Source of the DNA: Lacticaseibacillus absianus
GTDB lineage: Bacteria > Bacillota > Bacilli > Lactobacillales > Lactobacillaceae
DNA length: 64,000 bases
Assembly (NCBI RefSeq): GCF_013407595.1
Contig: NZ_JABEKX010000001.1
Coordinates: forward strand, 948,522 to 1,012,521
Direction: 5' to 3'
Under the pieces are notes generated by a model. The model ran no database searches. It was not told the DNA's origin and saw only the letters and a program-made list of their open reading frames with translations. This document shows positions 1-14,584 of this stretch, piece by piece. The translations under genes were made by a program, and so were the position numbers. Each line of letters opens with the position of its first letter. Within the stretch, counting starts at the first letter, position 1.

Positions 1-1
1 C

Positions 2-2932
2 CAGGGCTTTGTGGATAACCTGTTCAACCGCTATCCCATTAATATTGAAAACTTTGCGCAGCTGGTCAACGCGTACATTCAGAAAACCGGGCAGCGGGTT
101 GCTTTCCTGGTCGATGAAGTCGGCCAGTTCGTGGGCGATTCCGTTCAGCGGATGCTGAACCTGCAAACCGTGGTTGAGGAGCTGGGCTCTGCGACCAAAG
201 GCAAGGCGTGGGTGATTGTCACCTCTCAGCAGGCGATTGGGGATGTGACGACGAATCTCAACGGGCAGGATTTCTCCAAGATTCAAGGGCGGTTCAAGAC
301 GCGCATTGCATTGAGCTCGGCCAACGTCGACGAAGTGATTAAGCGGCGTTTGTTGACCAAAACCACCCCGGCGCAAATGGAGTTAGAAGGCCTGTATCAG
401 GGCAACGCCGCCGCCTTGCGCAACGCAATTGATTTTGACGATGGCGTCACCCGCCAGAAGTTCAGCGACCCGGCTGAGTTTGCGCTGAACTACCCGTTCG
501 TGCCGTACCAGTTCAACCTCTTGCAGGACGTGCTGACGGCGGTTCGTAACCACGGTTCGGACGGGAAGCACCTGTCCGAAGGGGAGCGGTCGATGCTTTC
601 CATTTTCCAGGAGTCCGCCATGCGCAAGATGGACGCGGAGGAGGGGCAGCTGGTGCCGTTCTCCCTGTTCTTCGAGGGCCTGGCCCAGTTCCTGGACCAC
701 ACGCATAACATTGTGATTCAGCGAGCCTGGGACAATCCATCACTGAACCCGAATCGGGAGAAGAACCCCTTCACGCTCCAAGTGTTGAAGACGCTGTTCA
801 TGGTCAAGTACCTGGACAGCTTCAAGGCGACGCTGAACAACCTGGTGACGCTGATGATCGACGATGTGAACGTCGATCGGATCGCGTTGACGAAGCAGAC
901 GCAAGAGGCCCTGGCTGCGCTGATCCGCGAAGGCGTCGTCGAGAAACACTTTGACCTGTACATTTTCCTGACCGATGCCGAGCAGGACATCAATGATGGG
1001 ATCGAGCACGAGAACGTCATCGACAGCGCCATTGCGGAGAACTTGCAGCAGTACTTCTTTGGAATTAGCAAAACGATTAGTGATCGCTACACCTATCCGA
1101 AGCTGCACAATCGCTACGTCTTTGCCTTTAACCGTTGGCTTGACGGCAAGCCATACGGGCGCGGCAACCAAGCGCTCACCATTCAGCTGATCACGCCGCA
1201 GAGTGACTACTTTGGCGATGAAAGCACCTACGCGCAGTTGTCGACTGCACCGGATACAATGGTGATTGCGCTGCCAGACGATCGCGACTATATTGACCTG
1301 ACCACTCGCTCTCTGAAGATCAAGCAGTATGTGTTGGGCAACACGAACAACCAGGATCCACGCTTCCGGTTGCTCCTGGACGAACGTCAGGATGAACGGA
1401 CTCGACTAGATCAATCCGCGCAGACGCAGGCATTAGATGCCCTAGAGCGCGCCCAGATTTTCGTTGCCGGCGCACCGATCAGCACGAGCCACGACTTCGC
1501 GGCCCGGCTGGAGGAAGCGGAGAAGGCGCTCATTGACAATAACTACCGCTCGTTAGACTACATCGATGCGGCGAAGTCGGAACAGGCGATCCTTTCATTG
1601 CTCAACGACAATGGGCTCGTCAAGACGGACGAAAATTCACGCGCGGTGGATGCCGTCTTTGACTGGCTTCAGCAGCAGTTGCGGACCAGTCAGCACGTAA
1701 CCTTGAAGTCCGTCCTGAACCGCTTTGCCACCATTCCTTACGGGTACACCGAAGAGGACACCGAGTGGTTGGTGGCCGCGTTGCTCAAAGCTGGGCGAGT
1801 CAAGCTCAGCTACAACGGCGAGCCAGTCAGTCTGATGCAGGACTCCGCGCGTCAGGTGACGGAATACCTGACAAAGAAGCAGTACGCAGAGCGCATTGCC
1901 ATCCAGGTGCGCTACGTCACCCCAGAACGTGACTTGAAGAAGCTGCGCGAAGTGGCGAAGGAAGTGTTCAAGCGGGAAAAGTTCGGTGCCGAAGACCTCG
2001 AAACCGTGACGCATGAGCTGCAGGACAAGGTCGGGGCAGACCTCAAGAACCTGGAGCACTTCGAGGATCAGAATCGCGCCTATCCGGGCCACGATCTGAT
2101 TGAAATGGGGATCAGTTACCTGCGTGAGCTTCAGGCGGCCAAGGACTCGGATGCGTTCGTTGCCACAATTGTGAAACGGTCAGACGATCTGCTTGACTGG
2201 CACGATGAGTACGTCGAAACAGACACGCAGGAGTTTTATCTCAGCGCACAGATGCAAAAAGTCTGGGACGATGGGCTCCAGGACCTGTCGATCTATGATC
2301 GGTCTAAGGACTTCCTGGCCGATGCAAAGTTGACGCAAATTGCGGAATCGTTGCGTGCAGTGCTGAAGTCGAATCGGGCCAAGGGGAACGTTCGGCGGAT
2401 TAAGGAACTGGATGAGCAGTTCGACGAGATATATAGTGCGGCGTTTGACCAAGTGCAGGCCGAGAAGCTGCAAGAGATTGATGAAACCAAGCAAAGTGGC
2501 TTAGACTACCTGCAACGTGCAGCGATCACACCAGACGTGGCGGCGGCTCAGCAGGAAGAGTTCTTGCGGGCGCTTGCGCGCATCCGTCAGGAAGCCGCAG
2601 ATGCGCGGGCATTGGATGAGCTCAACGTGACGACGTCGAAGGCTAAGACCCGGTTCCAGCGGATGACGAGTTACATCGAGAATCTGAAGCCGGTGGTGCC
2701 AGTTCCGCCAGTTGTGCCAGTAGATCCTGTCGATCCAGTGGACCCAATTCGCCCAGTGACACCTGTTAAACCACCAGTGCACCGCATCAAGACGGTTCAA
2801 GTGCGCGATGTCTCCGCGGGCAGTCAGTGGCGCATTAGCAGCGCAGCAGAACTTGATCATCATTTAGCGACCTTGCGTCAACAGTTGCTGGCGCGGCTGA
2901 AGGATGCGGATGAGATCGACTTACATTTCTAA
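2..2932 (+). CDS. brxC: BREX type 1 P-loop ATPase BrxC, 5' end outside window
   Basis: Large ATPase-like core component of BREX phage defence. The reading frame is open from the left edge, so the N-terminal part, expected to hold the Walker A loop, lies outside; 976 residues remain of a family usually near 1200. A Walker B-like stretch (AFLVDEVGQFVGD) lies about 35 residues in, followed by a long helical region. Near the C-terminus a Pro/Val/Asp linker built from VDPVDP-type steps precedes a conserved-looking tail (RDVSAGSQWRISS and an LRQQL helix). The next gene, pglX, starts 24 nt downstream, so both are in one operon. brxA and brxB would be expected upstream, outside the window. Identity is firm because order and neighbours match type 1 BREX. 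Confidence 0.93.
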   Translation, partial: QGFVDNLFNRYPINIENFAQLVNAYIQKTGQRVAFLVDEVGQFVGDSVQRMLNLQTVVEELGSATKGKAWVIVTSQQAIGDVTTNLNGQDFSKIQGRFKTRIALSSANVDEVIKRRLLTKTTPAQMELEGLYQGNAAALRNAIDFDDGVTRQKFSDPAEFALNYPFVPYQFNLLQDVLTAVRNHGSDGKHLSEGERSMLSIFQESAMRKMDAEEGQLVPFSLFFEGLAQFLDHTHNIVIQRAWDNPSLNPNREKNPFTLQVLKTLFMVKYLDSFKATLNNLVTLMIDDVNVDRIALTKQTQEALAALIREGVVEKHFDLYIFLTDAEQDINDGIEHENVIDSAIAENLQQYFFGISKTISDRYTYPKLHNRYVFAFNRWLDGKPYGRGNQALTIQLITPQSDYFGDESTYAQLSTAPDTMVIALPDDRDYIDLTTRSLKIKQYVLGNTNNQDPRFRLLLDERQDERTRLDQSAQTQALDALERAQIFVAGAPISTSHDFAARLEEAEKALIDNNYRSLDYIDAAKSEQAILSLLNDNGLVKTDENSRAVDAVFDWLQQQLRTSQHVTLKSVLNRFATIPYGYTEEDTEWLVAALLKAGRVKLSYNGEPVSLMQDSARQVTEYLTKKQYAERIAIQVRYVTPERDLKKLREVAKEVFKREKFGAEDLETVTHELQDKVGADLKNLEHFEDQNRAYPGHDLIEMGISYLRELQAAKDSDAFVATIVKRSDDLLDWHDEYVETDTQEFYLSAQMQKVWDDGLQDLSIYDRSKDFLADAKLTQIAESLRAVLKSNRAKGNVRRIKELDEQFDEIYSAAFDQVQAEKLQEIDETKQSGLDYLQRAAITPDVAAAQQEEFLRALARIRQEAADARALDELNVTTSKAKTRFQRMTSYIENLKPVVPVPPVVPVDPVDPVDPIRPVTPVKPPVHRIKTVQVRDVSAGSQWRISSAAELDHHLATLRQQLLARLKDADEIDLHF

Positions 2933-2956: not shown

Positions 2957-5900
2957 ATGGACAAACGCGCCATTAACAAGTTTGCAGTTCAAGCACGGCG
3001 TGACCTGATTGAGAGCGTCACGCGCCGGCTAAATGCATTGGGCATCACCGATCATGGGATTGAAGCAAAGGAAACGCGCTCTACCGCTCTGGCGGAATAT
3101 TACGCCGGCAGTACCCAGCCGCTTGAAGGAAAGGATATTCAGCGGCGGGCAGCGCTGGTGACGCGGCTGAATGAAATGGCTGCTAAGACTGACGCCCAGG
3201 CTGCGTTTACGGACTTGGTCGAGGAGGTCGCATACACGTGGTTCAACCGGATCATTGCGATTCGTTTCATGGAAGTCAACGACTACCTTCCTTCTGGTAC
3301 CCGAGTGCTCTCTTCTGCCGAGCAGCGAAATGAGCCGGATATCATGCGTGAAGCCCTGGATCTTGAAGACGAACTGGGCGGTTTTGCCCCAGACGAGTTG
3401 GCATTAATTCGTACTGCTCAAGACTCACAGCGGCCGCTGGACTTGGATGCGATGTATCAGATGCTGTTCATCAAACAGGTCAACAAGCTGAACGAGAGTC
3501 TGCCAAAATTGTTCGAGAAGACCGACGATTTCATGCAACTTTTGTTCACTCCCAGCTATAACCGCGGCGTGATTCGTGATCTTGTGGAGCAGATTCCTGA
3601 GGCCGACTTTGACATTGAGTCCGAGGGCAGTCAGGGGCAGGTTGAGATTATTGGGTGGCTGTATCAGTACTACAACACGGATTCAAAAGATGCCGCGATC
3701 AGTTCACCCAAGGCGCACAAGTTCCGCGGTAAGGAGATTGCATCTGCAACTCAGATCTTCACCCCAGACTGGATCGTTAAGTATATGGTTGAAAATTCAG
3801 TCGGAAAGACTTGGATTAAGCACTTAATGACGACCCACCCTGAAGTGTCTGAGGAAGATTTGGCACATCAGTTTAATTGGCAATACTACATGCCCGAAGC
3901 GTCTCAGGATACCGAAACACAAGAAGCAGAACGGCTCGTTGACCAAAAGTTGGTGGACTTAACCCCGCAACAGTTGACAACTTTGGACCCTTCGATGGGA
4001 TCTGGTCACATTCTAGTCTATGCCTTTGATCTCCTGATTCAGATCTACCGAAGTGAAGGCTATTCAGATCGAGAAGCTTCAACAGAGATTGTTACTTCCA
4101 ATTTATTTGGCTTAGACATCGATCGACGCGCTTATCAGTTAGCTTACTTTTCAGTGATGATGAAATACCGTCACTATAACCGGCGTGCGTTGAGAACGGC
4201 CGCAGTCCCGCACCTTGCAACAGTTGAAAGTTCAAAAGATTTGCATAGCGAGGACATTCAAGCAGCATTTCCACTGCTAGGGCAGAAGGAATTACAGTAT
4301 CTTAGCGACCTTCGGCAAACGTTTAAAGAAGCCGATTTGACCGGATCACTCACAGATACCCAGCAAGTTGACCTGACCGCGATTCGCCAAGCATTGGACG
4401 ATGTTCAGAATGTTCAGACCATCCTTTCCGACACAGTGCGCCAAGAATTGAACGATCTCTTTGATACCGCAAAAATCTTGGCCGCACAATACCAGAATAT
4501 TGTAACCAATCCTCCCTACATGGGTTCTGCACGGATGAACAAGTACCTAGCCGATTTCTCGAAGAAATTCTACCCTGAGTCAAAAGCGGATCTGTTCGCG
4601 ATGTTTTTGGAGCACTTTAACAAGGTTGTGTTACCTGGCGGATATGTCTCAATGGTAACAATGCAGTCCTGGATGTTTCTATCTAGCTTTGAACAACTTC
4701 GTATCCATCTATTGAACACCCGAACAATCTCAAATTTGATGCACATGGAAAATAACGTCATGGGGATTGCTTTCGGCACCGCTGTTACAATCACACGCAA
4801 TGTTCGATTGCCAAGGTTCACTGGTACGTATCATCAGATAAAGACCGGCGATGTTGCTGAAGGAAAGTTTCCAACCGCCTTGCCAGTGCCCGGGAATCGA
4901 TTCAATCGTGCTAACCAAGCGAATTTTAGTACCCTTCCTGGAAATATTCTCGGATATTGGGTGAGCACAAAAATGCTTAATGTTTTTCGAAAAAACAAGT
5001 CAATAAATGATTTTTTTGAAATTAAGGTCGGTATCCAAACTGGAGATAACCCCAGGTTTTATAGGCAGTGGACGGAAATTAGACAATTTGATACTGATTG
5101 GGTGAAAACAAATAAGAACGGCGAATACCGAAAGTGGTTTGGCAATCTAACTACAGTAATTTTATGGAAGGACAACGGAGCCGCTGTCAAGCAATGTGCA
5201 GATGAGAAGGGACGTATAAAATCTCGCCCACAAAACGAATCCTTTTACTTCCTACCAGGAATTTCGTTCTCAAATATAACCTCATCTGGCAACTTATCAG
5301 CCAGATTTGCCCCGGAGGGAATGATATTTGACCAAACTGTACCCACTGTTTTTACTAAATCAAATGAATCACTCGAAAATATAATGGCTTATCTAAATAG
5401 TAAGGTTGCTTTACATATCGGATCTATCGTTAGCCCAACGATGCATTTTAATGCTGGTGAGGTTTCAAAATATCCATATATTCCAACAGAAAATAATGAA
5501 TCAATTTTTTACCTCAGTACACAGAATGTTGAAAAAGCAAAAAAGGATTGGGATAGCTATGAGATTTCTTGGAGCTTTTCTACAATGCCATTTATTAAGC
5601 AAATTGCTGATCATAATCGAAACTGGACAGTTGAATCAGCTTACAATCAGTGGGCTAAGGAGGCTGAGGAGCGCTTTAATCAGCTGAAAGCAAATGAAGA
5701 GGAGCTCAACCGAATTTTCATCGACCTGTATGGCCTTCAGGATGAGCTGACGCCTGAGGTGGCGGATAAGGATGTTTCGGTCCGGAAAGCTGATTTGCCT
5801 CGTGATATCAAGGCGTTTCTCTCGTACTTCATCGGGGTTGTTTTTGGCCGCTATTCGCTGGATGTTCCAGGACTCGCCTTTGCTGGCGGTGAGTGGGACA

Positions 5901-6529
5901 ACTCAAAATATCAAACTTTCCAGCCGAATGCTGATGACATCATTGTTCTGACAGATGCGGATTACTTTGGTGATCAGCGTGATATTATCAACCGGCTCAA
6001 AGAATTCCTGACGGTGACCTTTGGCGCAGAGCACCTCGATGAGAACTTACGCTTCATCGCCGAAGCGCTTGGCAAGAAGGGGGCAACTGCGGAGCAACAG
6101 ATTCGCAACTACTTCCTTGACGATTTCTACAAGAAAGATCACCTGTCGACTTACCAGAAGCGGCCGATTTATTGGCAGCTGGATTCAGGGAAGCAAAGTG
6201 GGTTCCGTGCGTTGATGTACCTTCACCGCTACGATGAGAATACGCTCGCGATGGTGCGCACTTCTTACCTGCATCCGCTGCAGGAGGCTTATGCCAATCA
6301 GTTATCATCGCTGACGAAGATGATTGAGGTTGAGGTCAATTCCAAGCCACGCAATGAAATGACTAAGCAGATCGCCAAGTTGCAGAAACAACTGGAAGAA
6401 GTTGCGAAGTACGATGGCGCACTGCAGCACGTTGCGAATATGCACATCGCCCTTGACTTGGACGATGGTGTGCTGGTTAACCACGAGAAGGCTCAGGGTG
6501 GACAGAAATTATTGAGCCCATTGAAATAA
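2957..6529 (+). CDS. pglX: BREX type 1 adenine-specific DNA methyltransferase PglX, expressed copy
   Basis: N6-adenine methyltransferase that marks host DNA at the BREX site and is needed for defence. At 1190 aa it is full length for the family. The SAM-binding motif LDPSMGSGH is near residue 343 and the catalytic NPPY motif near residue 518; the second half should contain target recognition and a C-terminal helical domain. The ATG at 2957 follows an AGGGAAAAGG Shine-Dalgarno sequence. Codons 197-240 lie in a 133-bp segment repeated perfectly in inverted orientation at 9790-9922, so everything after about residue 240 can be exchanged by inversion. The region about 4950-5650 is much richer in A+T than the flanks, suggesting imported recognition-domain DNA. 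A hairpin terminator follows the stop. Confidence 0.95.
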   Translation: MDKRAINKFAVQARRDLIESVTRRLNALGITDHGIEAKETRSTALAEYYAGSTQPLEGKDIQRRAALVTRLNEMAAKTDAQAAFTDLVEEVAYTWFNRIIAIRFMEVNDYLPSGTRVLSSAEQRNEPDIMREALDLEDELGGFAPDELALIRTAQDSQRPLDLDAMYQMLFIKQVNKLNESLPKLFEKTDDFMQLLFTPSYNRGVIRDLVEQIPEADFDIESEGSQGQVEIIGWLYQYYNTDSKDAAISSPKAHKFRGKEIASATQIFTPDWIVKYMVENSVGKTWIKHLMTTHPEVSEEDLAHQFNWQYYMPEASQDTETQEAERLVDQKLVDLTPQQLTTLDPSMGSGHILVYAFDLLIQIYRSEGYSDREASTEIVTSNLFGLDIDRRAYQLAYFSVMMKYRHYNRRALRTAAVPHLATVESSKDLHSEDIQAAFPLLGQKELQYLSDLRQTFKEADLTGSLTDTQQVDLTAIRQALDDVQNVQTILSDTVRQELNDLFDTAKILAAQYQNIVTNPPYMGSARMNKYLADFSKKFYPESKADLFAMFLEHFNKVVLPGGYVSMVTMQSWMFLSSFEQLRIHLLNTRTISNLMHMENNVMGIAFGTAVTITRNVRLPRFTGTYHQIKTGDVAEGKFPTALPVPGNRFNRANQANFSTLPGNILGYWVSTKMLNVFRKNKSINDFFEIKVGIQTGDNPRFYRQWTEIRQFDTDWVKTNKNGEYRKWFGNLTTVILWKDNGAAVKQCADEKGRIKSRPQNESFYFLPGISFSNITSSGNLSARFAPEGMIFDQTVPTVFTKSNESLENIMAYLNSKVALHIGSIVSPTMHFNAGEVSKYPYIPTENNESIFYLSTQNVEKAKKDWDSYEISWSFSTMPFIKQIADHNRNWTVESAYNQWAKEAEERFNQLKANEEELNRIFIDLYGLQDELTPEVADKDVSVRKADLPRDIKAFLSYFIGVVFGRYSLDVPGLAFAGGEWDNSKYQTFQPNADDIIVLTDADYFGDQRDIINRLKEFLTVTFGAEHLDENLRFIAEALGKKGATAEQQIRNYFLDDFYKKDHLSTYQKRPIYWQLDSGKQSGFRALMYLHRYDENTLAMVRTSYLHPLQEAYANQLSSLTKMIEVEVNSKPRNEMTKQIAKLQKQLEEVAKYDGALQHVANMHIALDLDDGVLVNHEKAQGGQKLLSPLK
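3544..3676 (+). repeat. 133-bp inverted repeat, left copy (inside pglX)
   Basis: This segment of pglX is identical base for base to the reverse complement of 9790-9922. Identity stops sharply at both ends: T before GTTCACT here against C in the other copy, and ACGG after TACTACAAC against CAGG. The two copies diverge strongly outside it while still encoding homologous protein. This is the expected crossover region for inversion of the 6.4-kb interval by the adjacent recombinase or by homologous recombination. Confidence 0.97.
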
Positions 6530-6573
6530 GCAAAATTCCGTTCGCTGGATGAAATCCGTGAGCGGGATTTTGC
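6530..6573. terminator. Hairpin terminator after pglX
   Basis: GCAAAATTCCG at 6530-6540 can pair with CGGGATTTTGC at 6563-6573, leaving a short loop. The stem is A/T-rich on its outer side, so it can act in both directions, between the pglX stop codon and the end of the convergent recombinase gene. Confidence 0.6.
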
Positions 6574-6587
6574 TGTCTTATGAGGCG

Positions 6588-6610
6588 TTTGTGCCAACGA
6601 TTGTGCCAAG
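6588..6610 (+). repeat. Tandem TTGTGCCAA motif pair at the recombinase 3' end
   Basis: Two TTGTGCCAA nonamers in direct orientation, 3 nt apart, end one base before the recombinase stop codon. The same pair, 2 nt apart, occurs in inverted orientation at 7727-7748 just upstream of the recombinase start, so the gene is bracketed by them. They resemble arm-type binding sites of tyrosine recombinases; that role is inferred. Confidence 0.6.
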
Positions 6611-7690
6611 TTACGAAAGCGAGATTATTTGGATGATTTTATCCGTATCCTGTTCCTCGAGCTCCTTGATCACATGGAGGTAAGTTGATTGGGTCGTTGT
6701 GATATTCGCATGACCTAGACGCTTGGACACTGAGAGTACGTTGATCCCTTGGTAGAGGAGAATGGAGGCGTGTGTGTGGCGAAGACCGTGAAAGGTGATC
6801 CGCGGCAGGCGCAGTGACCGCAGCGTTTCTGTGAGTGATTTGTTGATCTCCGCACTGACAGGGACACGGTTATTTTCCAGAAATATTGGTTGCTCAGAAT
6901 TGATGTGGTGGCAAGCGCTATAATCTCGTATCGCTGAGGCGGTACTCAAGTTGATTGAAATCTTTCGAACGGAGCTGGGCGTCTTGGTCGGCTTGAAGCC
7001 AGTATGGTATTTGTAATCCCATGTCTTGTTCACGAGTAATAGATTGGAAGTGACGTCTAGGTCCACGGGTGTGAGACCAACAATCTCGGCGTAGCGCATA
7101 CCGGTGACTGCGGCGATGTAGATAATTAGATCGGATTTATCTGTTAGATCCAGGTGGGTTACTAGCCGTTGCCATTCGTTATAGTCGAGCGCCTTCTTTG
7201 GATGTTCAATGCGATGGCCACTGATCACCGCTTTGCGTGTGGGGTCGATAGGGATGATCTTTTCGTCAAGCGCATCCAAGATGGCGGCACGGATTTGCTT
7301 GTGGAAAGTTGCGACGGTGCGAGGCGCGTGATCAGCGGCGAACTCATTGAGCTTTTCTTGGTAAAGCGAGCGGGTCAGATCCTTTAGTGGCGTTCTACCA
7401 AACAGTCGCCGAATGTGTTGCAGCGTATTCTGGTACTTGATGAGCGTGATGGCGGTGACTGAGTTGGCCTTGTATAGGGCCACCCACCGACTAAAATAAT
7501 CAGCGAGCGGAATGTCTCCTGCCTTATAATGACGCGCGCTGATGTAGTTAGATTTGATCTCACTAGCCGCGATTTCTGCTTCGCTTTTAAGCTGAAAGCC
7601 TGATTTGCGTAGTTTCCTGTACTTGCCGTCTGGATCTTTGTATGAGATTTCGTACTGCCAGACATTTCCTCTTTTTCGATAACTGACCAT
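6611..7690 (-). CDS. Tyrosine recombinase (phage-integrase family), probable pglX invertase
   Basis: Site-specific recombinase of 359 aa. The N-terminal part resembles the AP2-like/arm-binding region of phage integrases (NVWQYEISYKDPDGKYR), followed by a SAM-like core-binding domain. The catalytic domain shows the Arg in TGMRYAEIVGL, the HGLRHTHAS box and the LGHANITTT...Y segment carrying the nucleophilic Tyr. The ATG at 7690 is chosen because AAAGGAG precedes it; an in-frame start 25 codons upstream would translate the TTGTGCCAA motifs and looks less likely. The gene lies between two oppositely oriented pglX copies, the arrangement expected of a local invertase, and its 5' part overlaps the out-of-frame tail of the silent pglX copy. 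Confidence 0.9.
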   Translation of the reverse strand: MVSYRKRGNVWQYEISYKDPDGKYRKLRKSGFQLKSEAEIAASEIKSNYISARHYKAGDIPLADYFSRWVALYKANSVTAITLIKYQNTLQHIRRLFGRTPLKDLTRSLYQEKLNEFAADHAPRTVATFHKQIRAAILDALDEKIIPIDPTRKAVISGHRIEHPKKALDYNEWQRLVTHLDLTDKSDLIIYIAAVTGMRYAEIVGLTPVDLDVTSNLLLVNKTWDYKYHTGFKPTKTPSSVRKISINLSTASAIRDYSACHHINSEQPIFLENNRVPVSAEINKSLTETLRSLRLPRITFHGLRHTHASILLYQGINVLSVSKRLGHANITTTQSTYLHVIKELEEQDTDKIIQIISLS

Positions 7691-9897
7691 GGTCTTGAAA
7701 CACTCCTTTGCGTAGTATGTGGATACCTTGGCACAAAATTGGCACAAAGGGGTGGTGAACGCCACTCATTTAGGAAGGCTGCGAGTTTATGATCAGCGAT
7801 GTGGTCGAGTAACGGGCTAGAACGAAATGACCAGGAGTCTTCGGATGCTATAATAAAACCCCTAACGGATGTAATAGATTGATCAACTAAATTATTAATG
7901 GTAGGTGTGGGGGTACTCGGGGTTGGAATACGTCTGAGATCTCCGTTTGTAAAAGACATACTAGGATTTAGTCCCTGTAGCAAGTGGAAGGTAACTTTTG
8001 AATTAAGTATACCCATCACTAACTCGGTGACATCGCTATTCTTAGGAAACATAGTTCGACTAGTATCGTCAAAGATATATCCAGGTGGTGCAAACTTAAC
8101 TCCGAACTTTGAGGAGCTAAGCTTTGTCCAAGATATGCCAGGTTTGAAATAATACTCAGTGTTACGTGCTGCACCCGCGATATTGCCTTTACCATTACGA
8201 TGTGTACGAATTCTCTCGCCGTTGTGCTGCCAATCCACTACCACTTCATTTTTTGAGTACCAGCGAATAAAATCACCTCCGGTTCGGCAGGGGTACCATC
8301 GCTTGTCGAGATGTTTTGTATCATTCACTTCTTCTGTATCAAAAGAGATCTGTGTTAAGTTAACTTCCGACCAGCGTCGCTGAAATAAAATGTTGTCTCC
8401 AGTTGATAAGCCAGCCTTTAAATCAACAATGCTATCGAGGCTCGGCAGAGTATCAAAAAGCCGAAAGAGTTTCTCTGTGAACCAATAGGCAATAGGACTC
8501 TCCGAAATTTGCTGGAATTTCGCTTGGTTAGCGCAATAGATATACTTCAGTTTCGGGTTCTCGACAGCCCGAAGATAGGCTTGCTCTTTCTTATTCTGTG
8601 AATCAAAATCAACCAGTCGCTCATAGGTGCCGATGAACCCTTCGGTGTTTTGTTTCTGCATCACAAATGCTACGGACTGGACAACTTCCCCGCCGATCTC
8701 TTCAAATGCCCGTGTGCCAAGATGCGCGAGATTGATTATGGTCTGCTGATTCAGTGTCTTTCTCAGCGCCTCAAAACTCGAGAGAAACATCCACTGATGC
8801 TGGGTGATCATGGCGTAGTAGCCCTGATCGACCGTTAGCTCGCGCAATCGCTCCATGAATACCCCAAATAAATCGGATTTACTGTTTGGATAGTGCTTTT
8901 TAACAAAAGAAGCGAGAAACGATGGCATTTTACCCGAACCCATGTAAGGCGGATTGGTCACACTAACCTGGTATTCACGGGTCAATAGTTCTAAGACCGC
9001 CAGCACTTGCGCCAGTTCTTGTCGTATTTGGTTTAACTGGATACTCTGCAGGGACAATTGCCCAACGTTGTCTTTAGCGGCTACGATGGCATGCAAGCTA
9101 CTGAGAACATCTGGGTCAAAATGGGCGCTGATCAGTGAGCCCAGTTCATCCCCATGGCCAAATAACGAGGCGAGCGTCTTCAACGCATCCAATACCTTAG
9201 GCTCTTTAGTCAGCTGCGCCAAGTCGTTCTGGTTCCAGTGAATATCTGGCACATCGAAGACTTGCGGCGTTACCTCCGCGCGCAACAGGCGGCGATCGTA
9301 CTGGCGACCCTTCATCATCATCGCAAAGTAGGTGAGCTGAAAGGCTCGCGTATCAATGTCTGCGCCAAACAAGTTGTGGCTCAGAATCATTCGGGAGGCT
9401 TCTCGCTGCGAATAACCGACGCTGGTGTAGAGTTGCACCAACAAGTCGAAGGCATAAATCAGAATGTGCCCGGAGCCCATCGACGGGTCGATAATTCTGA
9501 TGTTTTCCGGCTTTAGGTCGCTCAGAGATTGGTTATTACGTTGAGCAAGCACGGCAACGGCATCGGATTGCTCTGCATCCGGCATGAAGTAGTGCCAGCC
9601 AAACTCATGTGCCAAATCTTGAGCGGTTCGCGTATCGCCAGCCGCCTGCAAGTGATTGATCCACAGGCGGCCGACCGAGTTTTCCACCAGATACTTGACA
9701 ATCCAGTCAGGCGTGAACAACTGTGTCACAGCCGGGATGTCTGCTTGTGTGTAGTTGCGCTTCTTGAAGGCCTTGTCTTTGGGTTCCTGGTTGTAGTACT
9801 GATACAGCCACCCAATAATCTCAACCTGCCCCTGACTGCCCTCGGACTCAATGTCAAAGTCGGCCTCAGGAATCTGCTCCACAAGATCACGAATCAC
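7384..9897 (-). CDS. pglX: Silent second pglX copy (truncated at both ends), alternative methyltransferase cassette
   Basis: An 837-codon frame homologous to residues about 205-890 of the complete PglX. It keeps the SAM motif (IIDPSMGSGH) and NPPY, but target-recognition sequences differ throughout. It has no N-terminal 200 residues and no obvious start signal: the first codon is simply an internal GTG in the shared 133-bp repeat. Homology ends near IADH at about 7790; the last roughly 130 codons read out of frame through the recombinase start region and are probably not functional protein. After inversion at the repeat this cassette would be joined in frame to the N-terminal 204 codons, giving about 1041 aa. 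In the orientation seen here it is most likely unexpressed. Confidence 0.85.
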   Translation of the reverse strand: MIRDLVEQIPEADFDIESEGSQGQVEIIGWLYQYYNQEPKDKAFKKRNYTQADIPAVTQLFTPDWIVKYLVENSVGRLWINHLQAAGDTRTAQDLAHEFGWHYFMPDAEQSDAVAVLAQRNNQSLSDLKPENIRIIDPSMGSGHILIYAFDLLVQLYTSVGYSQREASRMILSHNLFGADIDTRAFQLTYFAMMMKGRQYDRRLLRAEVTPQVFDVPDIHWNQNDLAQLTKEPKVLDALKTLASLFGHGDELGSLISAHFDPDVLSSLHAIVAAKDNVGQLSLQSIQLNQIRQELAQVLAVLELLTREYQVSVTNPPYMGSGKMPSFLASFVKKHYPNSKSDLFGVFMERLRELTVDQGYYAMITQHQWMFLSSFEALRKTLNQQTIINLAHLGTRAFEEIGGEVVQSVAFVMQKQNTEGFIGTYERLVDFDSQNKKEQAYLRAVENPKLKYIYCANQAKFQQISESPIAYWFTEKLFRLFDTLPSLDSIVDLKAGLSTGDNILFQRRWSEVNLTQISFDTEEVNDTKHLDKRWYPCRTGGDFIRWYSKNEVVVDWQHNGERIRTHRNGKGNIAGAARNTEYYFKPGISWTKLSSSKFGVKFAPPGYIFDDTSRTMFPKNSDVTELVMGILNSKVTFHLLQGLNPSMSFTNGDLRRIPTPSTPTPTINNLVDQSITSVRGFIIASEDSWSFRSSPLLDHIADHKLAAFLNEWRSPPLCANFVPRYPHTTQRSVSRPWSVIEKEEMSGSTKSHTKIQTASTGNYANQAFSLKAKQKSRLVRSNLTTSARVIIRQETFRSLIILVGGWPYTRPTQSPPSRSSSTRIRCNTFGDCLVERH
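7727..7748 (-). repeat. Tandem TTGTGCCAA motif pair upstream of the recombinase
   Basis: Read on the minus strand this is two TTGTGCCAA motifs 2 nt apart. It is the inverted counterpart of 6588-6610 and lies 37 bp upstream of the recombinase ATG, where it could also serve as an autoregulatory site. Confidence 0.6.
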
Positions 9898-9922
9898 GCC
9901 GCGGTTATAGCTGGGAGTGAAC
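9790..9922 (-). repeat. 133-bp inverted repeat, right copy (start of silent pglX)
   Basis: Reverse complement is identical over 133 bp to 3544-3676. It ends about 100 bp before pglZ, so an inversion would leave pglZ and brxL in place. Confidence 0.97.
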
Positions 9923-9943
9923 GATATCTGGTGTAGATGCTAG

Positions 9944-10020: not shown

Positions 10021-12549
10021 ATGGCTGAGTTGGAGTTGGATCAGGTTGTTCAGGGGATTGAGGCACGTTTCACTGACGACAATCACTTTGTTTTTTGGTA
10101 TGACGAAGCGGCCGATTTTAAGGACAACATTCCGGCAATTCGGGCTCGGCTTGCCCAACCGGTGATCGAGCTGCAGCCGCGCGAGCAGTTTCGCACGAAG
10201 TTGCAGCTGACCGAGATGCAGCGCCGGGGTGAGTCCGCGTTGGTGTACTCACCGGCGCCGATGCCAGCCTTGCACCTGAATCTGATGGCAGACATGCTGC
10301 GCTACTCGAGGACGTATGCCGCGGATGCGCTGACGATGCTGCAAGAAGAGTTGGGGCTCGCGCAAGGCGATCGCCAGTTCCTGCGCAACCACGCGACGTT
10401 CTTTGCCAGCAAGGAGCGCAAGCAGCGGTTCGTGAGCCTGAACTATAACCGTCAGCCGCTGGAGATGGTGCTGCTGGCGGCACTGGCCAAGGCCCAGGGG
10501 CCGGCGCTCAGTGCGGTGCTCCAGAGCGTGATTCAAGGCGGGCTCGAGGATGACAATCTCGTGTTGGCTCAGTTTGAAAAATTCGGCGCGCTGGATGCCT
10601 TCTGGCGCTTCGTGGAACAGGCGTATGGCTTCAGCGGCGAGCACCAGACGCTGCGCCACCTGTTCACCGCTATGTTCTTGAACATGGCATACGATCAGGC
10701 GGGCAAAGCACTGCCGAGCACCCTGAAGGCCTACGCGCTGAGCGGCGCCAACAACGCGATTACGTTTATTCAAAACAGTCGGAACCTGCTGACCTGTCGT
10801 GACGCGATTCAACAGGTGGCAACAGAGGTGTGGACGTTCGTGAAGGGGGCGCGGCTGTTCGGCGCGATGGAGCTGCGCGACCTGGCGCAGATCGATGCGT
10901 TTCCGCAGATTGACCACCTGATCATTCAGTGGGTGACGGGGCGCCTTCTGGCCGATGATTTTGGCGTACGCATTGGGCGCCAGACGCTGGCCGGACTGAT
11001 TGAAGACCGATTGAACCGCCCTTATGGTGAGCAGATGGTCTCAGCTTACCAGATTCAACAAGACGCGCTGACGATGCTGACAACGCAGGCGAGTGACGCC
11101 CCGACGGATCTGCTGGCCGTGATCACCGCTTACGTTGACCACGACTATGTGTTGGACACGAGTTATCGCCACTTCACGGCCGCGTGTGCCGCGGTGGCGC
11201 CTGATCTGGAGGACCTGACCGAAGGCATTCAGGCGAAGGTCGAAAATACTTACCTCAACGGCTTCTTGAGCCACTCGATTCGGCAGTGGAACGCGGTTTA
11301 TGCGCCTGACGCCGTACCGCGTGATCGCCAGCAGCGCAACTTCTACCGCCAGTTCGTGTCAATCGACGAGGGGCGCACCGTGGTGATCATTTCGGATGCC
11401 TTTCGTTTTGAGGCCGCACAGGAACTTAAGGCGCAACTGGATGCGCGCGATGTGATGCAGACGGAGATGCAGTACTTGGTGACGGGCTTACCTTCCGTGA
11501 CTTACTTTGGCATGCCGGCCCTGCTGCCGAACCGCAGTTTGCGCTTCAATGGCAAGGATGGCGTGCTGGTCGATGATCAGGTGGTGAACTCAACGCAAAA
11601 GCGCGAGGCGGTGTTGCAGGCGACGAATCCTGCCAGTGCCGCTGAGCTCGTCAAGAACTTCAACGCCATGAGCAGTCAGGCGCGTAAGACCTTCCTGGCG
11701 GGCCAAAAAGTGGTGTATCTGTACGATAACCAAATCGACACCACCGGGGAGAAATCCGTCACCGAGCAGGAGGTGTTCAGCGCCACCGCGCGCGCCATCG
11801 AGAACCTGGCGCGCACCATTGAGCTTTTGCGTAATGTGTCAGTAAGGCACATTATTGTGACCGCGGATCACGGGTTCATCTACCGTCAGTCACCGCTCGA
11901 TAGCGCCAACAAGATCCCAGTATCGGATCAGATGTGGCAGGATGTCGGCGGGTTGCGCAAGGAGCAGCGCTACGCCATCACGGAGCAGCCACTGACTGTC
12001 ACGGGCACCGCACACCAGCAACTCGGGGCCTTGATGGGCAATGATGACACGCGCTGGGTGAACTACCCCACGAGCTTCAACATCTTCGTTGCGCCGGGCC
12101 CGAGTCAAAATTATGTGCACGGAGGCTCTTCCGCCCAAGAAATGATTGTGCCAGTGCTGGATATTCGCACCAGTACCGGGCGCTCCTTGGCCGAGCCGGC
12201 AAAGCTCAAGGATGTGACGGCCTCACCGCGCATTACATCGCGCGATGTGAACATCCAGCTGATGCAGGAGTTGCCATTGAGTGACCTGGTGACGGCCGCC
12301 AGCTACCTGATCTACTTTGAGGATGCGCAAGGGGACAAAATCTCCGGCGTGCGCGAAGTGGTGGCGGACAGCCGCGAGGAAACCCCAACCGCGCGGATTC
12401 AGCGCGTGCGCCTGACCCTGAAGGACGCGAAGTACAGCAACGGGCGCAAGTACACGCTGGTGATTCACAACACGGAAACTGATGAAGAAGTCCACACGGA
12501 ATATACGATGGACATGGTGATCGGGGGAGGGTTCGGCTTTGACATCTGA
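10021..12549 (+). CDS. pglZ: BREX type 1 alkaline-phosphatase-like protein PglZ
   Basis: Core BREX protein of 842 aa with an alkaline-phosphatase-superfamily metal-binding fold. Two diagnostic stretches are visible: VIISDAFRFEAAQEL near residue 455, with the metal-binding Asp, and IIVTADHGFIYR near residue 612, with the Asp-His pair. Length and position match PglZ of type 1 BREX. The ATG at 10021 follows a G-rich stretch (GGGG, about 10 nt upstream), a modest ribosome-binding site. The stop overlaps the brxL start, implying coupled translation. Codon use and GC content return to the high level of brxC, in contrast to the pglX cassettes. What PglZ hydrolyses in defence is not known from the family. 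Confidence 0.95.
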   Translation: MAELELDQVVQGIEARFTDDNHFVFWYDEAADFKDNIPAIRARLAQPVIELQPREQFRTKLQLTEMQRRGESALVYSPAPMPALHLNLMADMLRYSRTYAADALTMLQEELGLAQGDRQFLRNHATFFASKERKQRFVSLNYNRQPLEMVLLAALAKAQGPALSAVLQSVIQGGLEDDNLVLAQFEKFGALDAFWRFVEQAYGFSGEHQTLRHLFTAMFLNMAYDQAGKALPSTLKAYALSGANNAITFIQNSRNLLTCRDAIQQVATEVWTFVKGARLFGAMELRDLAQIDAFPQIDHLIIQWVTGRLLADDFGVRIGRQTLAGLIEDRLNRPYGEQMVSAYQIQQDALTMLTTQASDAPTDLLAVITAYVDHDYVLDTSYRHFTAACAAVAPDLEDLTEGIQAKVENTYLNGFLSHSIRQWNAVYAPDAVPRDRQQRNFYRQFVSIDEGRTVVIISDAFRFEAAQELKAQLDARDVMQTEMQYLVTGLPSVTYFGMPALLPNRSLRFNGKDGVLVDDQVVNSTQKREAVLQATNPASAAELVKNFNAMSSQARKTFLAGQKVVYLYDNQIDTTGEKSVTEQEVFSATARAIENLARTIELLRNVSVRHIIVTADHGFIYRQSPLDSANKIPVSDQMWQDVGGLRKEQRYAITEQPLTVTGTAHQQLGALMGNDDTRWVNYPTSFNIFVAPGPSQNYVHGGSSAQEMIVPVLDIRTSTGRSLAEPAKLKDVTASPRITSRDVNIQLMQELPLSDLVTAASYLIYFEDAQGDKISGVREVVADSREETPTARIQRVRLTLKDAKYSNGRKYTLVIHNTETDEEVHTEYTMDMVIGGGFGFDI

Positions 12550-14584
12550 GGAACGGCAGTTGCGGCGTACCACGATTTTGAACAAGCTGGAACAGTATTT
12601 TTCGGGGCGGTACGTGCGTAAGGACCTGACCCAGCGGATCAAGGAAGGCGCGAATGTGCCCACCTACGTGCTGGAGTTTTTGCTCGGGCAGTACGCGAAC
12701 GGTTCGGATCCGCAGGCGATTGAGCGCGGCGTGGAGAACGTGAAGCGGACGCTGGCGAATAACTACGTGCGGCCGGATGAGGCGGAGAAGATTAAGTCTA
12801 AGATCCGCGAAAATGGCGCGTATACTGTCATTGATAAGCTGACGGTGTACTTGAATACCAGCGAGGATCGCTACGAGGCGCGCTTTGGCAATCTTGGTAT
12901 TGATGGTGTTCCGGTCGACGAACGGTACCCACAAGATTACGAGCGGCTGCTGATCGGTGGAATTTGGTCGATTGTGCGCCTGAGCTACGATCACGAGGAT
13001 GAGGACCACTTTCGGATTGAAGAGTTGACCCCGGTTCAGGTGCCATTCGTGGATATGGAAGAGGTTTACGCTGGACGGCGGGCATTCAGCACCGATGAGT
13101 GGATTGATCTGCTGCTGCGTTCCATGGGCATGGAGCCAGATGAGTTCGATGACCGCATGAAGTGGTTGCTAATTGCGCGGCTGATCCCACTGGTTGAGAA
13201 CAACTACAACTTGGTGGAACTTGGGCCCCGCGGGACCGGGAAGTCTCACGTGTACAAAGAACTCTCCCCAAACACCATTCTGGTTTCGGGAGGCCAGACC
13301 ACGGTGGCTAACCTGTTTTACAACATGACTCGCCGCGAAGTAGGGTTGGTGGGCATGTGGGATACGGTTGCCTTCGATGAGGTGGCCGGCATTAGCTTCA
13401 AGGATCAGGATGGCGTCCAGATCATGAAGGATTACATGGCGTCGGGATCCTTTGCACGCGGCCGGGCGGAGATTCAGGCCAGCGCAGGGATGGTGTTTGT
13501 CGGTAATATCAATCAGAGTGTGGATGTGCTCTTTCGGACGTCCAACCTGTTCGAACCGTTCCCAGAGGCGATGGGCACAGACACCGCGTTCCTCGATCGC
13601 ATTCACAACTATCTTCCCGGCTGGGAAATTCTCAAGTACAAGCCGAGCTTTTTCACCTCAGACTTTGGGTTCATCACGGACTACCTGGCCGAGGTGATGC
13701 GCGAGCTGCGGAAAATTTCATATGGGGACGCGTTCGATGATGATTTTGCCCTGGGCGCGCAGCTGAATCAACGCGACACGATTGCGGTGCGCAAAACGGT
13801 GTCGGGCATGATCAAGCTGATCTTCCCGAATGGCGAATACGAAAAGGCGGATGTGGAAAAGATTCTTACCTTTGCCCTTGAAATGCGGCGCCGCGTGAAG
13901 GAACAGCTGAAGCGCATCGGGGGCATGGAATTCTACGATGTAAACTTCTCCTACATCGATCGCGAGACGCAGCAGGAAACCTTTGTGGGGGTTCCTGAGC
14001 AAGGCTCAACAACGCTTATCCCTGGGGGCACTGAAAAACCCGGCTTCGTCTACACCATCCAACGCGATGCCAGCGAGCGGCTGGGCTTGTTCAAGCTGGA
14101 AAGTCAGGTTATGGCCGGATCGGGTAGACTGGAGAAAACGGGGATTGGAGGCAATCGCCAAGCGCGTGAAGCTATGGACACGGCCATGCGTCTGTTGCAA
14201 TCCAGTTACGCCACGATTGATCAGCGCCTGTCGCCCAACCACCACGACTTTGTGTTGCATGTCGCAAATCTGAATGGGCTGGAAATGACCGGCCAGCTCG
14301 CCCTGACCAGTTACATTGCACTGGTTTCGATTGGGGCAGGCCGCGCGACGCTTGACAGCCTTGTGGTTCTAGGGGATGTGACGATTGGCGGCACTGCGGC
14401 TAAGCTGGATGGCTTGGCGGATCAATTGCAGATTGCCAGCGACAGCGGGGCGAAAAACGTCTTGATTCCGGTCAGCGCAGTGGAGCAGTTGCCAAGTGTT
14501 CCGGCCGATCTTGTTGCCAAGTTTAACTTGATCTTTTACTCGATGGCGCAGGAGGCTGTGTTTAAGGCGCTGGGCGTGAACTAA
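12539..14584 (+). CDS. brxL: BREX type 1 AAA+ protein BrxL (Lon-like)
   Basis: Protein of 681 aa with a central AAA+ module: Walker A in GPRGTGKSHVYKE near residue 230 and Walker B in TVAFDEVAG near residue 277. The C-terminal part has a Lon-protease-like fold signature including the segment SGAKNVLIP, although a clear catalytic Ser motif is not obvious. The start is taken as TTG at 12539 because GGGGGAGGG lies 7 nt upstream and no ATG occurs nearby; this overlaps the last codons of pglZ by 11 nt. BrxL closes the conserved type 1 BREX gene set (brxABC, pglX, pglZ, brxL). Confidence 0.94.
   Translation: MTSEERQLRRTTILNKLEQYFSGRYVRKDLTQRIKEGANVPTYVLEFLLGQYANGSDPQAIERGVENVKRTLANNYVRPDEAEKIKSKIRENGAYTVIDKLTVYLNTSEDRYEARFGNLGIDGVPVDERYPQDYERLLIGGIWSIVRLSYDHEDEDHFRIEELTPVQVPFVDMEEVYAGRRAFSTDEWIDLLLRSMGMEPDEFDDRMKWLLIARLIPLVENNYNLVELGPRGTGKSHVYKELSPNTILVSGGQTTVANLFYNMTRREVGLVGMWDTVAFDEVAGISFKDQDGVQIMKDYMASGSFARGRAEIQASAGMVFVGNINQSVDVLFRTSNLFEPFPEAMGTDTAFLDRIHNYLPGWEILKYKPSFFTSDFGFITDYLAEVMRELRKISYGDAFDDDFALGAQLNQRDTIAVRKTVSGMIKLIFPNGEYEKADVEKILTFALEMRRRVKEQLKRIGGMEFYDVNFSYIDRETQQETFVGVPEQGSTTLIPGGTEKPGFVYTIQRDASERLGLFKLESQVMAGSGRLEKTGIGGNRQAREAMDTAMRLLQSSYATIDQRLSPNHHDFVLHVANLNGLEMTGQLALTSYIALVSIGAGRATLDSLVVLGDVTIGGTAAKLDGLADQLQIASDSGAKNVLIPVSAVEQLPSVPADLVAKFNLIFYSMAQEAVFKALGVN

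What the first reader, a model, noticed from the sequence alone, without database searches (positions are those of the whole stretch)
3544..9922. Invertible 6.4-kb BREX segment: two pglX cassettes around a tyrosine recombinase
A perfect 133-bp inverted repeat lies in complete pglX (3544-3676) and at the start of an opposite-strand partial pglX (9790-9922), with a tyrosine recombinase between. Inversion would join the first 204 PglX codons in frame to the second cassette, changing methyltransferase core and recognition domain. Phase-variable pglX with an adjacent recombinase is already described in BREX loci of lactobacilli, so the principle is known; this allele pair is what is new.
Basis: partly seen in the sequence, partly recalled or inferred. 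Interest (0 to 1): 0.75.

Follow-up and report, generated by a model that had tools for sequence, protein, structure and literature searches.

The report
Three-site shuffling switch in BREX methyltransferase
A lactic-acid bacterium carries a phage-defence methyltransferase gene beside a silent spare copy and a recombinase, with three pairs of swap sites near the protein's domain borders, so flips could mix its methylating and DNA-reading parts or cut off its tail.

Summary
In detail: a perfect 133-bp inverted repeat (3544-3676 / 9790-9922) links pglX to an opposite-strand partial pglX, with an intact tyrosine recombinase between, in a complete type 1 BREX locus, probably of a Lacticaseibacillus. 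The reading is incomplete. The second cassette also lacks the ~300-aa C-terminal domain (CTD), so the proposed single inversion gives a CTD-less 1041-aa PglX. Loci from 52 genomes of the family point to two more swap sites, in the methyltransferase/TRD hinge and near the TRD/CTD border. All three are the strongest peaks of synonymous-codon constraint in the gene, fit one register (YATYG-N8-AANCNAW), and are present, two of them short, in this window. In silico all eight arrangements stay in frame: even flip numbers give four full-length MTD x TRD combinations, odd numbers CTD-less PglX. Relatives show cassettes, MTDs or TRDs in switched positions; silent cassettes are under purifying selection. 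The octamer TGTGCCAA flanks the recombinase and is absent beside armless relatives. Inverting pglX in lactobacilli was already known; the three-site parity rule, arm sites and a split-CTD sister form I did not find in eight paper searches. Switching in this strain is inferred, not seen.

The parts
1..2932 (+). brxC (3' part; full gene starts upstream, L033:7852)
   Evidence: PADLOC BrxC E=3e-270; full-length with brxA and brxB upstream
2957..6529 (+). pglX (brxX), active full-length copy, 1190 aa
   Evidence: PADLOC PglX E=0 over 1-1181; solved relatives 8c45, 8zek, 9ewz E<=2.2e-171
2957..3568 (+). fixed N-terminal domain (codons 1-204), present only once
3540..3559 (+). swap site IR1, active copy (TTTTG-TTCACTCC-CAGCTAT), outer edge of the 133-bp repeat 3544-3676
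   Evidence: codon-constraint peak residues 194-202
3544..3676 (+). 133-bp perfect inverted repeat, arm 1
3569..4903 (+). methyltransferase domain A (MTD, beta clade)
   Evidence: Eco57I/MmeI-type Pfam hits; tree
4904..4923 (+). swap site IRm, active copy (AATCG-TGCTAACC-AAGCGAA)
   Evidence: 14-bp core GCTAACCAAGCGAA found only at the two sites in the genome
4924..5601 (+). target recognition domain A (TRD)
   Evidence: alignment to solved PglX/BrxX
5602..5621 (+). swap site IR3, active copy (AATTG-CTGATCAT-AATCGAA)
   Evidence: ATYGCTGATCATAA found only at the two sites in the genome
5622..6529 (+). C-terminal domain (CTD), present only once
6590..6609 (+). two TGTGCCAA octamers (6590, 6602), putative recombinase arm-type sites
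6611..7690 (-). tyrosine recombinase, 359 aa, Arm-DNA-bind_4 + SAM-like + catalytic domain; R199, H301, R304, H327, Y337 invariant in the 17 sequences aligned
   Evidence: Pfam, alignment
7728..7746 (-). two TGTGCCAA octamers (7728, 7739), putative arm-type sites
7782..7801 (-). swap site IR3, silent copy (CATCG-CTGATCAT-AAACTCG)
7802..8518 (-). TRD B (silent)
8519..8538 (-). swap site IRm, silent copy (TATTG-CGCTAACC-AAGCGAA)
8539..9906 (-). MTD B (silent, gamma clade)
   Evidence: PADLOC PglX E=1.6e-227 for the whole partial cassette; tree
9790..9922 (-). 133-bp perfect inverted repeat, arm 2
9907..9926 (-). swap site IR1, silent copy (TATCG-TTCACTCC-CAGCTAT)
10021..12549 (+). pglZ (brxZ)
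   Evidence: PADLOC PglZ E=2e-242
12539..14584 (+). brxL
   Evidence: PADLOC BrxL E=0
14610..15560 (+). Mrr-like type IV restriction enzyme
   Evidence: PADLOC mREase_IV E=1e-61

Best explanation
This is a modular DNA-inversion switch of the BREX methyltransferase PglX. One integrase-like tyrosine recombinase recombines three pairs of inverted sites, near the NTD|MTD border (IR1), in the MTD|TRD hinge (IRm) and near the TRD|CTD border (IR3). Each inversion exchanges everything downstream of its site between the active gene and the silent opposite-strand cassette. NTD and promoter stay fixed, and there is only one CTD. So an odd number of flips leaves the active gene without its CTD (predicted loss or change of BREX activity), and an even number restores full length with one of four MTD x TRD combinations (predicted change of methylation and defence motif). 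The three sites share half-sites (YATYG ... AANCNAW) but differ in the 7-8 bp between them. This would let one enzyme use all three without crossing between site types. TGTGCCAA repeats beside the recombinase gene are probably its arm-binding sites. Shown: gene content, repeats, DNA-level conservation of three sites, in-frame products in silico, switched positions among relatives, purifying selection on silent cassettes, association of octamer with arm domain. Inferred: catalysis by this recombinase, current switching in this strain, functional state of CTD-less PglX, changes of motif.
For: Conserved layout: of 33 fetched loci with NTD, CTD and recombinase all present, 27 have the CTD beside the active cassette on its strand, 2 have the CTD-recombinase segment flipped (L065, L072), 4 are of the split type (the 27 include L055, a near-copy of L054, and L070, a broken locus). 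Exact inverted matches of >=15 bp fall at up to three places per locus. A scan of synonymous codon bias along PglX (63 copies) puts every 5-codon window >=0.53 bits in residues 194-202, 649-657 and 882-887 (77 copies). The 11 pglX loci with no recombinase in the stretch fetched use other codons or other residues at IR1 and IR3. One register for the three sites: offsets -5, -5 and -10 agree. All eight flip states in frame: 1190, 1198, 1211, 1203 aa with CTD; 1041, 1033, 1020, 1028 aa without. Moved modules between sibling species: whole cassette (L059/L060), TRD alone (L052/L064), MTD alone (L038/L061). dN/dS 0.035-0.115 in seven comparisons that include a silent copy. The active/silent label on the MTD tree needs 16 changes in the 51 rows with a sure label, against a mean of 17.1 in 200 shuffles (17 in all 56 rows, at least 10 forced by starred branches). 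25 of 25 loci hold two different MTD clades, against 3 of 200,000 permutations. Of the 80 best recombinase relatives in genome contigs, the 26 at >=56% identity all lie beside pglX cassettes (many are named records of loci also fetched unnamed). Octamer flanks. In published L. rhamnosus GG data, reciprocal synonymous changes lie in the two pglX copies at matching codons inside IR1, and one change in each copy lies near IRm (PMC6256098; my reading).
Against: No reads or second strain of this species were available, so no inversion was observed here. In this window IRm and IR3 are short (14 bp exact; 14 bp with one mismatch) and lie where the proteins are similar, so they could be worn out here even if active in relatives. 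Exchanges between siblings are not clean reciprocal swaps: the partner modules do not match. Registers are not unique winners: IR1-IR3 at -10 scores 4.91 against 4.95 for a reversed alignment, and IRm-IR3 at -5 scores 4.56 against 4.31 for a reversed one. At IRm the contrast with recombinase-less loci is weaker: L073 encodes the same ANQANF with only three base differences. Codon shuffles are not a fair null: many windows exceed them because of relatedness. The 25 loci are related, so the permutation overstates certainty. IR1 and long repeats at IRm could also recombine by RecA. Some silent cassettes are broken or partial (L035, L040, L045, L053, L061, L074). 8 of 14 arm-bearing non-BREX relatives lack the octamer.
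Confidence: 0.72

Rival explanations
1. A simple two-state switch: only the 133-bp IR1 pair inverts in this species, toggling between full-length PglX (A) and a CTD-less 1041-aa PglX (B), i.e. an ON/OFF or restriction-off switch rather than a specificity switch.
For: Only IR1 is long and perfect here; the product is fixed by sequence.
Against: IRm and IR3 cores are present, found only at these sites in the genome, and agree between the copies in 7 or 8 of the 8 middle bases. MTD B and TRD B remain open, and silent cassettes in relatives are under purifying selection that an OFF state alone would not need.
Confidence: 0.15
2. RecA-dependent homologous recombination or gene conversion keeps IR1 and IRm identical and exchanges modules over evolutionary time; the recombinase is not the main agent.
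For: IR1 (133 bp here) and repeats at or just after IRm in some relatives (up to 251 bp, L034) are long enough; sibling comparisons show replaced partners. In pneumococcus some hsdS inversions do not need PsrA (PMC7096588 passages).
Against: IR3 is 15-32 bp in 20 of the 22 loci that I listed for it (77 and 59 bp in the other two) and 11 bp exact here, short for RecA. Codon-level conservation of three short motifs, octamers beside the gene, and the 26 of 26 association point to a site-specific enzyme.
Confidence: 0.12
3. The partial pglX is a separate expressed subunit or regulator ('second methyltransferase') rather than a silent donor.
For: In L. paracasei Zhang a second methyltransferase gene was proposed to be regulatory (PMC10164179 passage).
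Against: It lacks NTD and CTD, and I see no clear ribosome-binding site before it here (by eye, sequence printed). In the same passage inactivation of pglX, not of the second gene, removed 6mA. The label swaps between copies across species.
Confidence: 0.06
4. Relic: an integrase-bearing element inserted next to a decaying duplicate of pglX.
For: The recombinase is integrase-like with arm domain, and the partial cassette is truncated at both ends.
Against: Similar borders in several genera, dN/dS 0.035-0.115, 25 of 25 loci with two different MTD clades, no other mobile gene between the cassettes in the window.
Confidence: 0.02

Closest known systems
Inverting pglX of Lactobacillus type 1 BREX (L. 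rhamnosus GG; Goldfarb et al. 2015, paper not held, recalled; L. rhamnosus arrangement seen in a passage of PMC7513527)
   Same: [quoted passage not shown] Phase variation of pglX is cited in several papers (passages).
   Different: I found no description of three site pairs near the domain borders, the single-CTD parity rule, shared half-sites with different middles, arm-type octamers, or the split-CTD sister form. Goldfarb's own text could not be checked.
Pneumococcal cod/ivr locus: PsrA (CreX) inverting hsdS genes of a type I R-M system
   Same: One tyrosine recombinase, three inverted-repeat pairs (15, 298, 85 bp), IR1-like sequence needed in IR2 and IR3, one expressed and silent gene copies (PMC7096588 passages). 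Recombinases at 43-48% identity to ours lie near HsdS genes in four of nine loci checked (L118, L127, L128, L159).
   Different: Target is one-protein PglX (methyltransferase and TRD together), so MTD and TRD both shuffle. Here a single fixed CTD makes odd flips truncating. The BREX recombinase has an arm-binding domain and flanking octamers, which 42 of 42 armless relatives checked lack. PsrA itself was not compared.
Phage/ICE-type tyrosine integrases with arm-type and core-type sites
   Same: Arm-DNA-bind_4 + SAM + catalytic domains; a prophage integrase is the best solved relative (3lys); the same octamer pair, 11 bp apart, follows 5 of 14 arm-bearing non-BREX relatives checked.
   Different: No element to excise is seen; it would work on inverted core sites inside a defence gene.

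Membership tests
Type 1 BREX | brxA, brxB, brxC, pglX, pglZ, brxL in one cluster | tested here: met
   PADLOC hits for all six
Inverting pglX of lactobacilli (Goldfarb type) | full-length pglX plus opposite-strand partial pglX with a recombinase gene between | tested here: met
Inverting pglX of lactobacilli (Goldfarb type) | inverted repeat joining the two copies in frame | tested here: met
   133 bp perfect, in-frame joins
Inverting pglX of lactobacilli (Goldfarb type) | both orientations present in a culture | not testable with these tools
   no reads or second strain; only cross-species positions
PsrA/CreX-type hsdS inverting systems | target is an HsdS specificity subunit of a type I R-M system | tested here: not met
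   target is PglX in BREX
PsrA/CreX-type hsdS inverting systems | several inverted-repeat pairs served by one locus-encoded tyrosine recombinase | tested here: inconclusive
   three site pairs and one recombinase present; catalysis not tested
Tyrosine recombinase family | catalytic R-H-R-H-Y set | tested here: met
   R199, H301, R304, H327, Y337 invariant in 17 aligned sequences; Pfam PF00589; which residues are catalytic is recalled
Integrative mobile element | element with att ends and mobility genes around the integrase | tested here: not met
   pglX pieces and BREX genes surround it; att ends were not searched for as such

The most novel reading that the evidence does not exclude
A single arm-site integrase drives an eight-state, parity-gated shuffle of one defence enzyme: one flip disables PglX by removing its only CTD, a second flip at another site restores it with a different MTD or TRD. 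The cell would thus pass through a CTD-less (perhaps restriction-off) state whenever it changes its methylation motif. A sister lineage escaped this coupling by splitting the CTD into a separate gene, and its recombinase has neither arm domain nor arm sites.
Probability: 0.5. Interest if true: 0.78.

Novelty: new variant of a known kind. Interest (0 to 1): 0.62.

Why it matters
BREX self/non-self recognition rests on PglX, and how a system changes its motif without restricting its own unmodified chromosome is an open problem. A switch in which each single inversion removes the CTD and each pair of inversions installs a new MTD x TRD combination suggests a built-in safe passage: off, then on with a new motif. 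It is directly testable in a food-grade genus. It also suggests natural rules for swapping PglX domains (three junctions near the domain borders, all combinations in frame), a candidate multi-site recombinase with site types distinguished by their middle base pairs, and natural evidence that the PglX CTD may work as a separate protein.

Tried and rejected
Considered and rejected: the single-inversion model as a full specificity switch (product lacks CTD); a relic reading (conservation, dN/dS); a second independent methyltransferase. A shuffle null for the codon scan was tried and found too permissive because the rows are related, so I rely on rank and position of the peaks. The IR1-IR3 register alone is ambiguous; I rely on the agreement of the three pairwise offsets. 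A recombinase search in the order at E<=1e-75 gave 7 of 295 genomes and added little. A family-wide exact search for one 24-mer IRm consensus matched 12 of 397 genomes, and not the window's own, whose site differs. Goldfarb 2015 is not held. Ten paper searches were allowed and eight used; in their listings I saw no paper that describes three-site pglX shuffling, but preprints and subscription papers are outside the library and I read only passages or single sections of the papers opened.

Rows dropped or relabelled: near-duplicate loci L055 and L070 and the split-type loci L036, L037, L039, L066 were left out (INT+ set); L043 (truncated recombinase) fell out by its length filter. In one search copies without a visible NTD were labelled silent by default, which is unsure for L062, L069 and L074; one search repeats the count without these loci (16 changes, shuffles 17.1). 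Of the 52 genomes, 4 (G320, G179, G243, G193) have contigs cut near the recombinase position and were not classed as having or lacking it. The first octamer check used 19 armless non-BREX loci; one search repeats it on all 54 lower-ranked loci plus the four split loci.
Full report
OBSERVATION. The inverted repeat is real: 3544-3676 and 9790-9922 are exactly reverse-complementary over 133 bp, are the only two matches in the genome held, and have no comparable rival in the first 20 kb. The surrounding locus is a complete type 1 BREX: brxA, brxB and brxC just upstream, then pglX, recombinase, partial pglX, pglZ, brxL and an Mrr-like enzyme. The recombinase has an arm-binding, a SAM-like and a catalytic domain. 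Its R199, H301, R304, H327 and Y337 are invariant in an alignment of 17. The closest named recombinase found is from Lacticaseibacillus kribbianus, 81% identical; records of the window's own genome may be left out of that search, so the genus is probable, not proven.

The partial pglX lacks two ends, not one. BLASTP aligns it to PglX residues 205-899 only; beyond that its frame runs through the recombinase start region. Joining codon 204 to it by one IR1 inversion gives 1041 aa ending in unrelated sequence, without the ~300-residue CTD. In solved BrxX/PglX the CTD is a conserved domain that contributes DNA contacts (passages of PMC11842806 and PMC11341690).

THE FAMILY. 52 of 397 genomes of the family have a pglX match at E<=1e-60. 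I read the loci of all 52 (the window itself). By my tally carry the recombinase, 11 show pglX with no recombinase in the stretch fetched, and 4 are cut by contig ends. The common layout is NTD-cassette-CTD forward, recombinase and second cassette backward, then pglZ. Of 33 loci with NTD, CTD and recombinase present, 27 have the CTD beside the active cassette, 2 (L065 from G089, L072 from G047) have CTD and recombinase flipped together, and 4 have a stand-alone CTD (position and strand only, frames not required to be intact; L055 and L070 near-repeat other rows). L065 and L072 look like IR3 inversions caught in an assembly.

THREE SITES. Exact inverted matches of 15 bp or more fall at up to three places per locus; in the window only IR1 reaches that length. 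A scan of synonymous codon use over the whole gene, which did not use the repeats, ranks the same three places first: residues 194-202, 649-657 and 882-887 hold every 5-codon window of 0.53 bits or more (63 copies; smoothed mean 0.16 and s.d. 0.12 in the 77-copy version). By alignment to a solved 1205-aa relative (8zek) and the borders given for E. coli BrxX, IR1 lies some 20-27 residues before the NTD/MTD border, IRm in the hinge, and IR3 about 30 residues inside the CTD. Of the 11 loci without recombinase, four (L056, L073, L087, L088) encode LFTPNY at IR1 with other codons; at IR3 ten lack the IAD/IAE motif and L073 has VAEH with other codons. So these residues look like the footprint of a DNA site. 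At IRm the contrast is weaker, since L073 has ANQANF with only three bases different.

ONE REGISTER. The three sites align without gaps as YATYG-N8-AANCNAW. The best offset is -5 for IR1-IRm (5.86, s.d. 1.08) and -5 for IRm-IR3 (4.56, s.d. 0.92; best reversed alignment 4.31). IR1-IR3 at the implied -10 scores 4.91, just behind a reversed alignment at 4.95. Half-sites are shared and the middles differ between site types, as expected if one enzyme serves all three while matching middles decide partners (inference). In this window the middles agree between the two copies: TTCACTCC for IR1, 7 of 8 (GCTAACC) for IRm, CTGATCAT for IR3. The IRm and IR3 cores occur exactly once in each orientation in the genome.

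PRODUCTS. Inverting the window in silico at every combination of sites keeps pglX open in all eight states. Zero or two flips: 1190 (A/A), 1198 (B/A), 1211 (B/B), 1203 (A/B) aa, all with CTD (MTD/TRD named in that order). One or three flips: 1041, 1033, 1020, 1028 aa, none with CTD. This parity rule follows from geometry, given one CTD and nested sites.

EVIDENCE OF USE. Between sibling species, L059/L060 have the same cassette active in one and silent in the other (MTD 95.7%, TRD 99.2% DNA identity). L052/L064 keep MTDs in place (93.1%, 92.5%) but the TRD silent in L052 is active in L064 (94.5%). L038/L061 show the MTD in switched position (97.3%) with the TRD not switched (85.8% over 134 codons). 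The partner modules do not match at 80%, so these are not clean reciprocal swaps. dN/dS is 0.035-0.115 for the seven comparisons that include a silent copy (0.053, 0.059, 0.115 for the three silent-silent ones) and 0.039-0.211 for the three active-active ones. On the MTD tree the active/silent label needs 16 changes in the 51 rows with a sure label, shuffled mean 17.1, 75 of 200 shuffles as low; with all 56 rows it needs 17, at least 10 of them forced by starred branches. So the label is about as scattered as chance. In 25 of 25 loci with both MTDs placed, the two belong to different MTD clades (3 of 200,000 permutations; related loci, so not independent).

PUBLISHED HINT, MY READING. In L. 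rhamnosus GG KCTC 5033 against ATCC 53103, Table 1 of PMC6256098 (section 14 read) lists C>T and G>A in the partial pglX at positions that I compute as codons 24 and 25. In the full pglX it lists changes that in gene sense are T>C and A>G at codons 219 and 220. With an offset of 195 these are the same codons exchanged between the copies, inside IR1; a third change in the partial copy has no listed counterpart. Table 2 (passage seen) lists one change in each copy, at codons I compute as 459 (=654) and 636 if it uses the same coordinates, which I could not check. In the passages seen the authors do not link these to inversion; mapping artefacts of a mixed population would look similar.

RECOMBINASE AND ARM SITES. 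The genome-contig scan returned the best 80 of 359 confirmed relatives. The 26 at >=56% identity all lie beside pglX cassettes; of the other 54, 4 more lie in BREX loci (L115, L116, L117, L122) and 50 show no pglX or BREX match within the DNA held. HsdS-type proteins lie near four of nine further loci checked (L118, L127, L128, L159; 10 proteins). The octamer TGTGCCAA is the commonest k-mer beside the gene: upstream in 31 of 31 loci, on both sides in 27 of 31, 79 copies in 9,920 bp of flank against 159 in all 515,406 bp. It is absent from the flanks of 8 of 8 armless BREX recombinases (7 distinct loci; two have little DNA on one side) and 34 of 34 armless non-BREX ones, absent in 2 of 2 unsure ones, and present beside 6 of 14 arm-bearing non-BREX ones. 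I read it as the arm-type site of the PF14657 domain (inference).

SPLIT-CTD SISTER FORM. In L036, L037, L039 and L066 the CTD is a separate short gene with GGAGG or GGGGG ahead of it, while NTD-cassette frames of 891-921 aa stop without CTD. There a flip need not cost the CTD. This supports, but does not prove, that the fused form pays for odd states.

KNOWN OR NEW. Inverting pglX with a recombinase is known from L. rhamnosus (arrangement in PMC7513527, passage; Goldfarb 2015 recalled, not held). The mode of work is closest to PsrA and the pneumococcal hsdS genes (PMC7096588 passages). What I did not find in the listings of eight searches is the three-site structure near domain borders, the parity rule, the common register, the arm octamers or the split form. 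I therefore file it as a new variant of a known kind.

Noticed in passing
L036 10677-11540, L037 11180-12043, L039 3486-4349, L066 13424-14287 (layout also in L115, L116, L117, L122): A split form of the switch: the PglX CTD is a stand-alone gene with a G-rich ribosome-binding-site-like sequence, three of the four unnamed loci hold an extra TRD piece, and the recombinase lacks the arm domain.
   Followed up: partly
L033 1728-5760 (upstream of brxA in the same genome): JetC- and JetD-like proteins (PADLOC E=6e-21 and 3e-14), so a Wadjet-like system may sit next to BREX.
   Followed up: no
window 14610-15560: Mrr-like type IV restriction gene directly after brxL; a methyl-dependent nuclease beside a motif-switching methylase is a possible conflict or safeguard.
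   Followed up: no
window 15672-18170 and 19102-20031: Large protein with a ParB-like stretch and a protein resembling ADP-ribosylglycohydrolases (both by eye, recalled motifs) next to the BREX cluster.
   Followed up: no
L069 and L070 (both ends of one contig of G260): Near-identical, frameshifted copies of the whole pglX switch at both ends of one contig; assembly overlap or two decayed copies.
   Followed up: no
L119, L123, L125, L126, L165: Arm-bearing integrase relatives outside BREX carry the same TGTGCCAA pair 11 bp apart just after the gene, a hint at the ancestry of the BREX recombinase.
   Followed up: partly
25 family loci: Each locus holds two MTDs from different old clades, never the same clade twice; reason unknown (avoidance of homologous recombination, or different base contacts).
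   Followed up: partly
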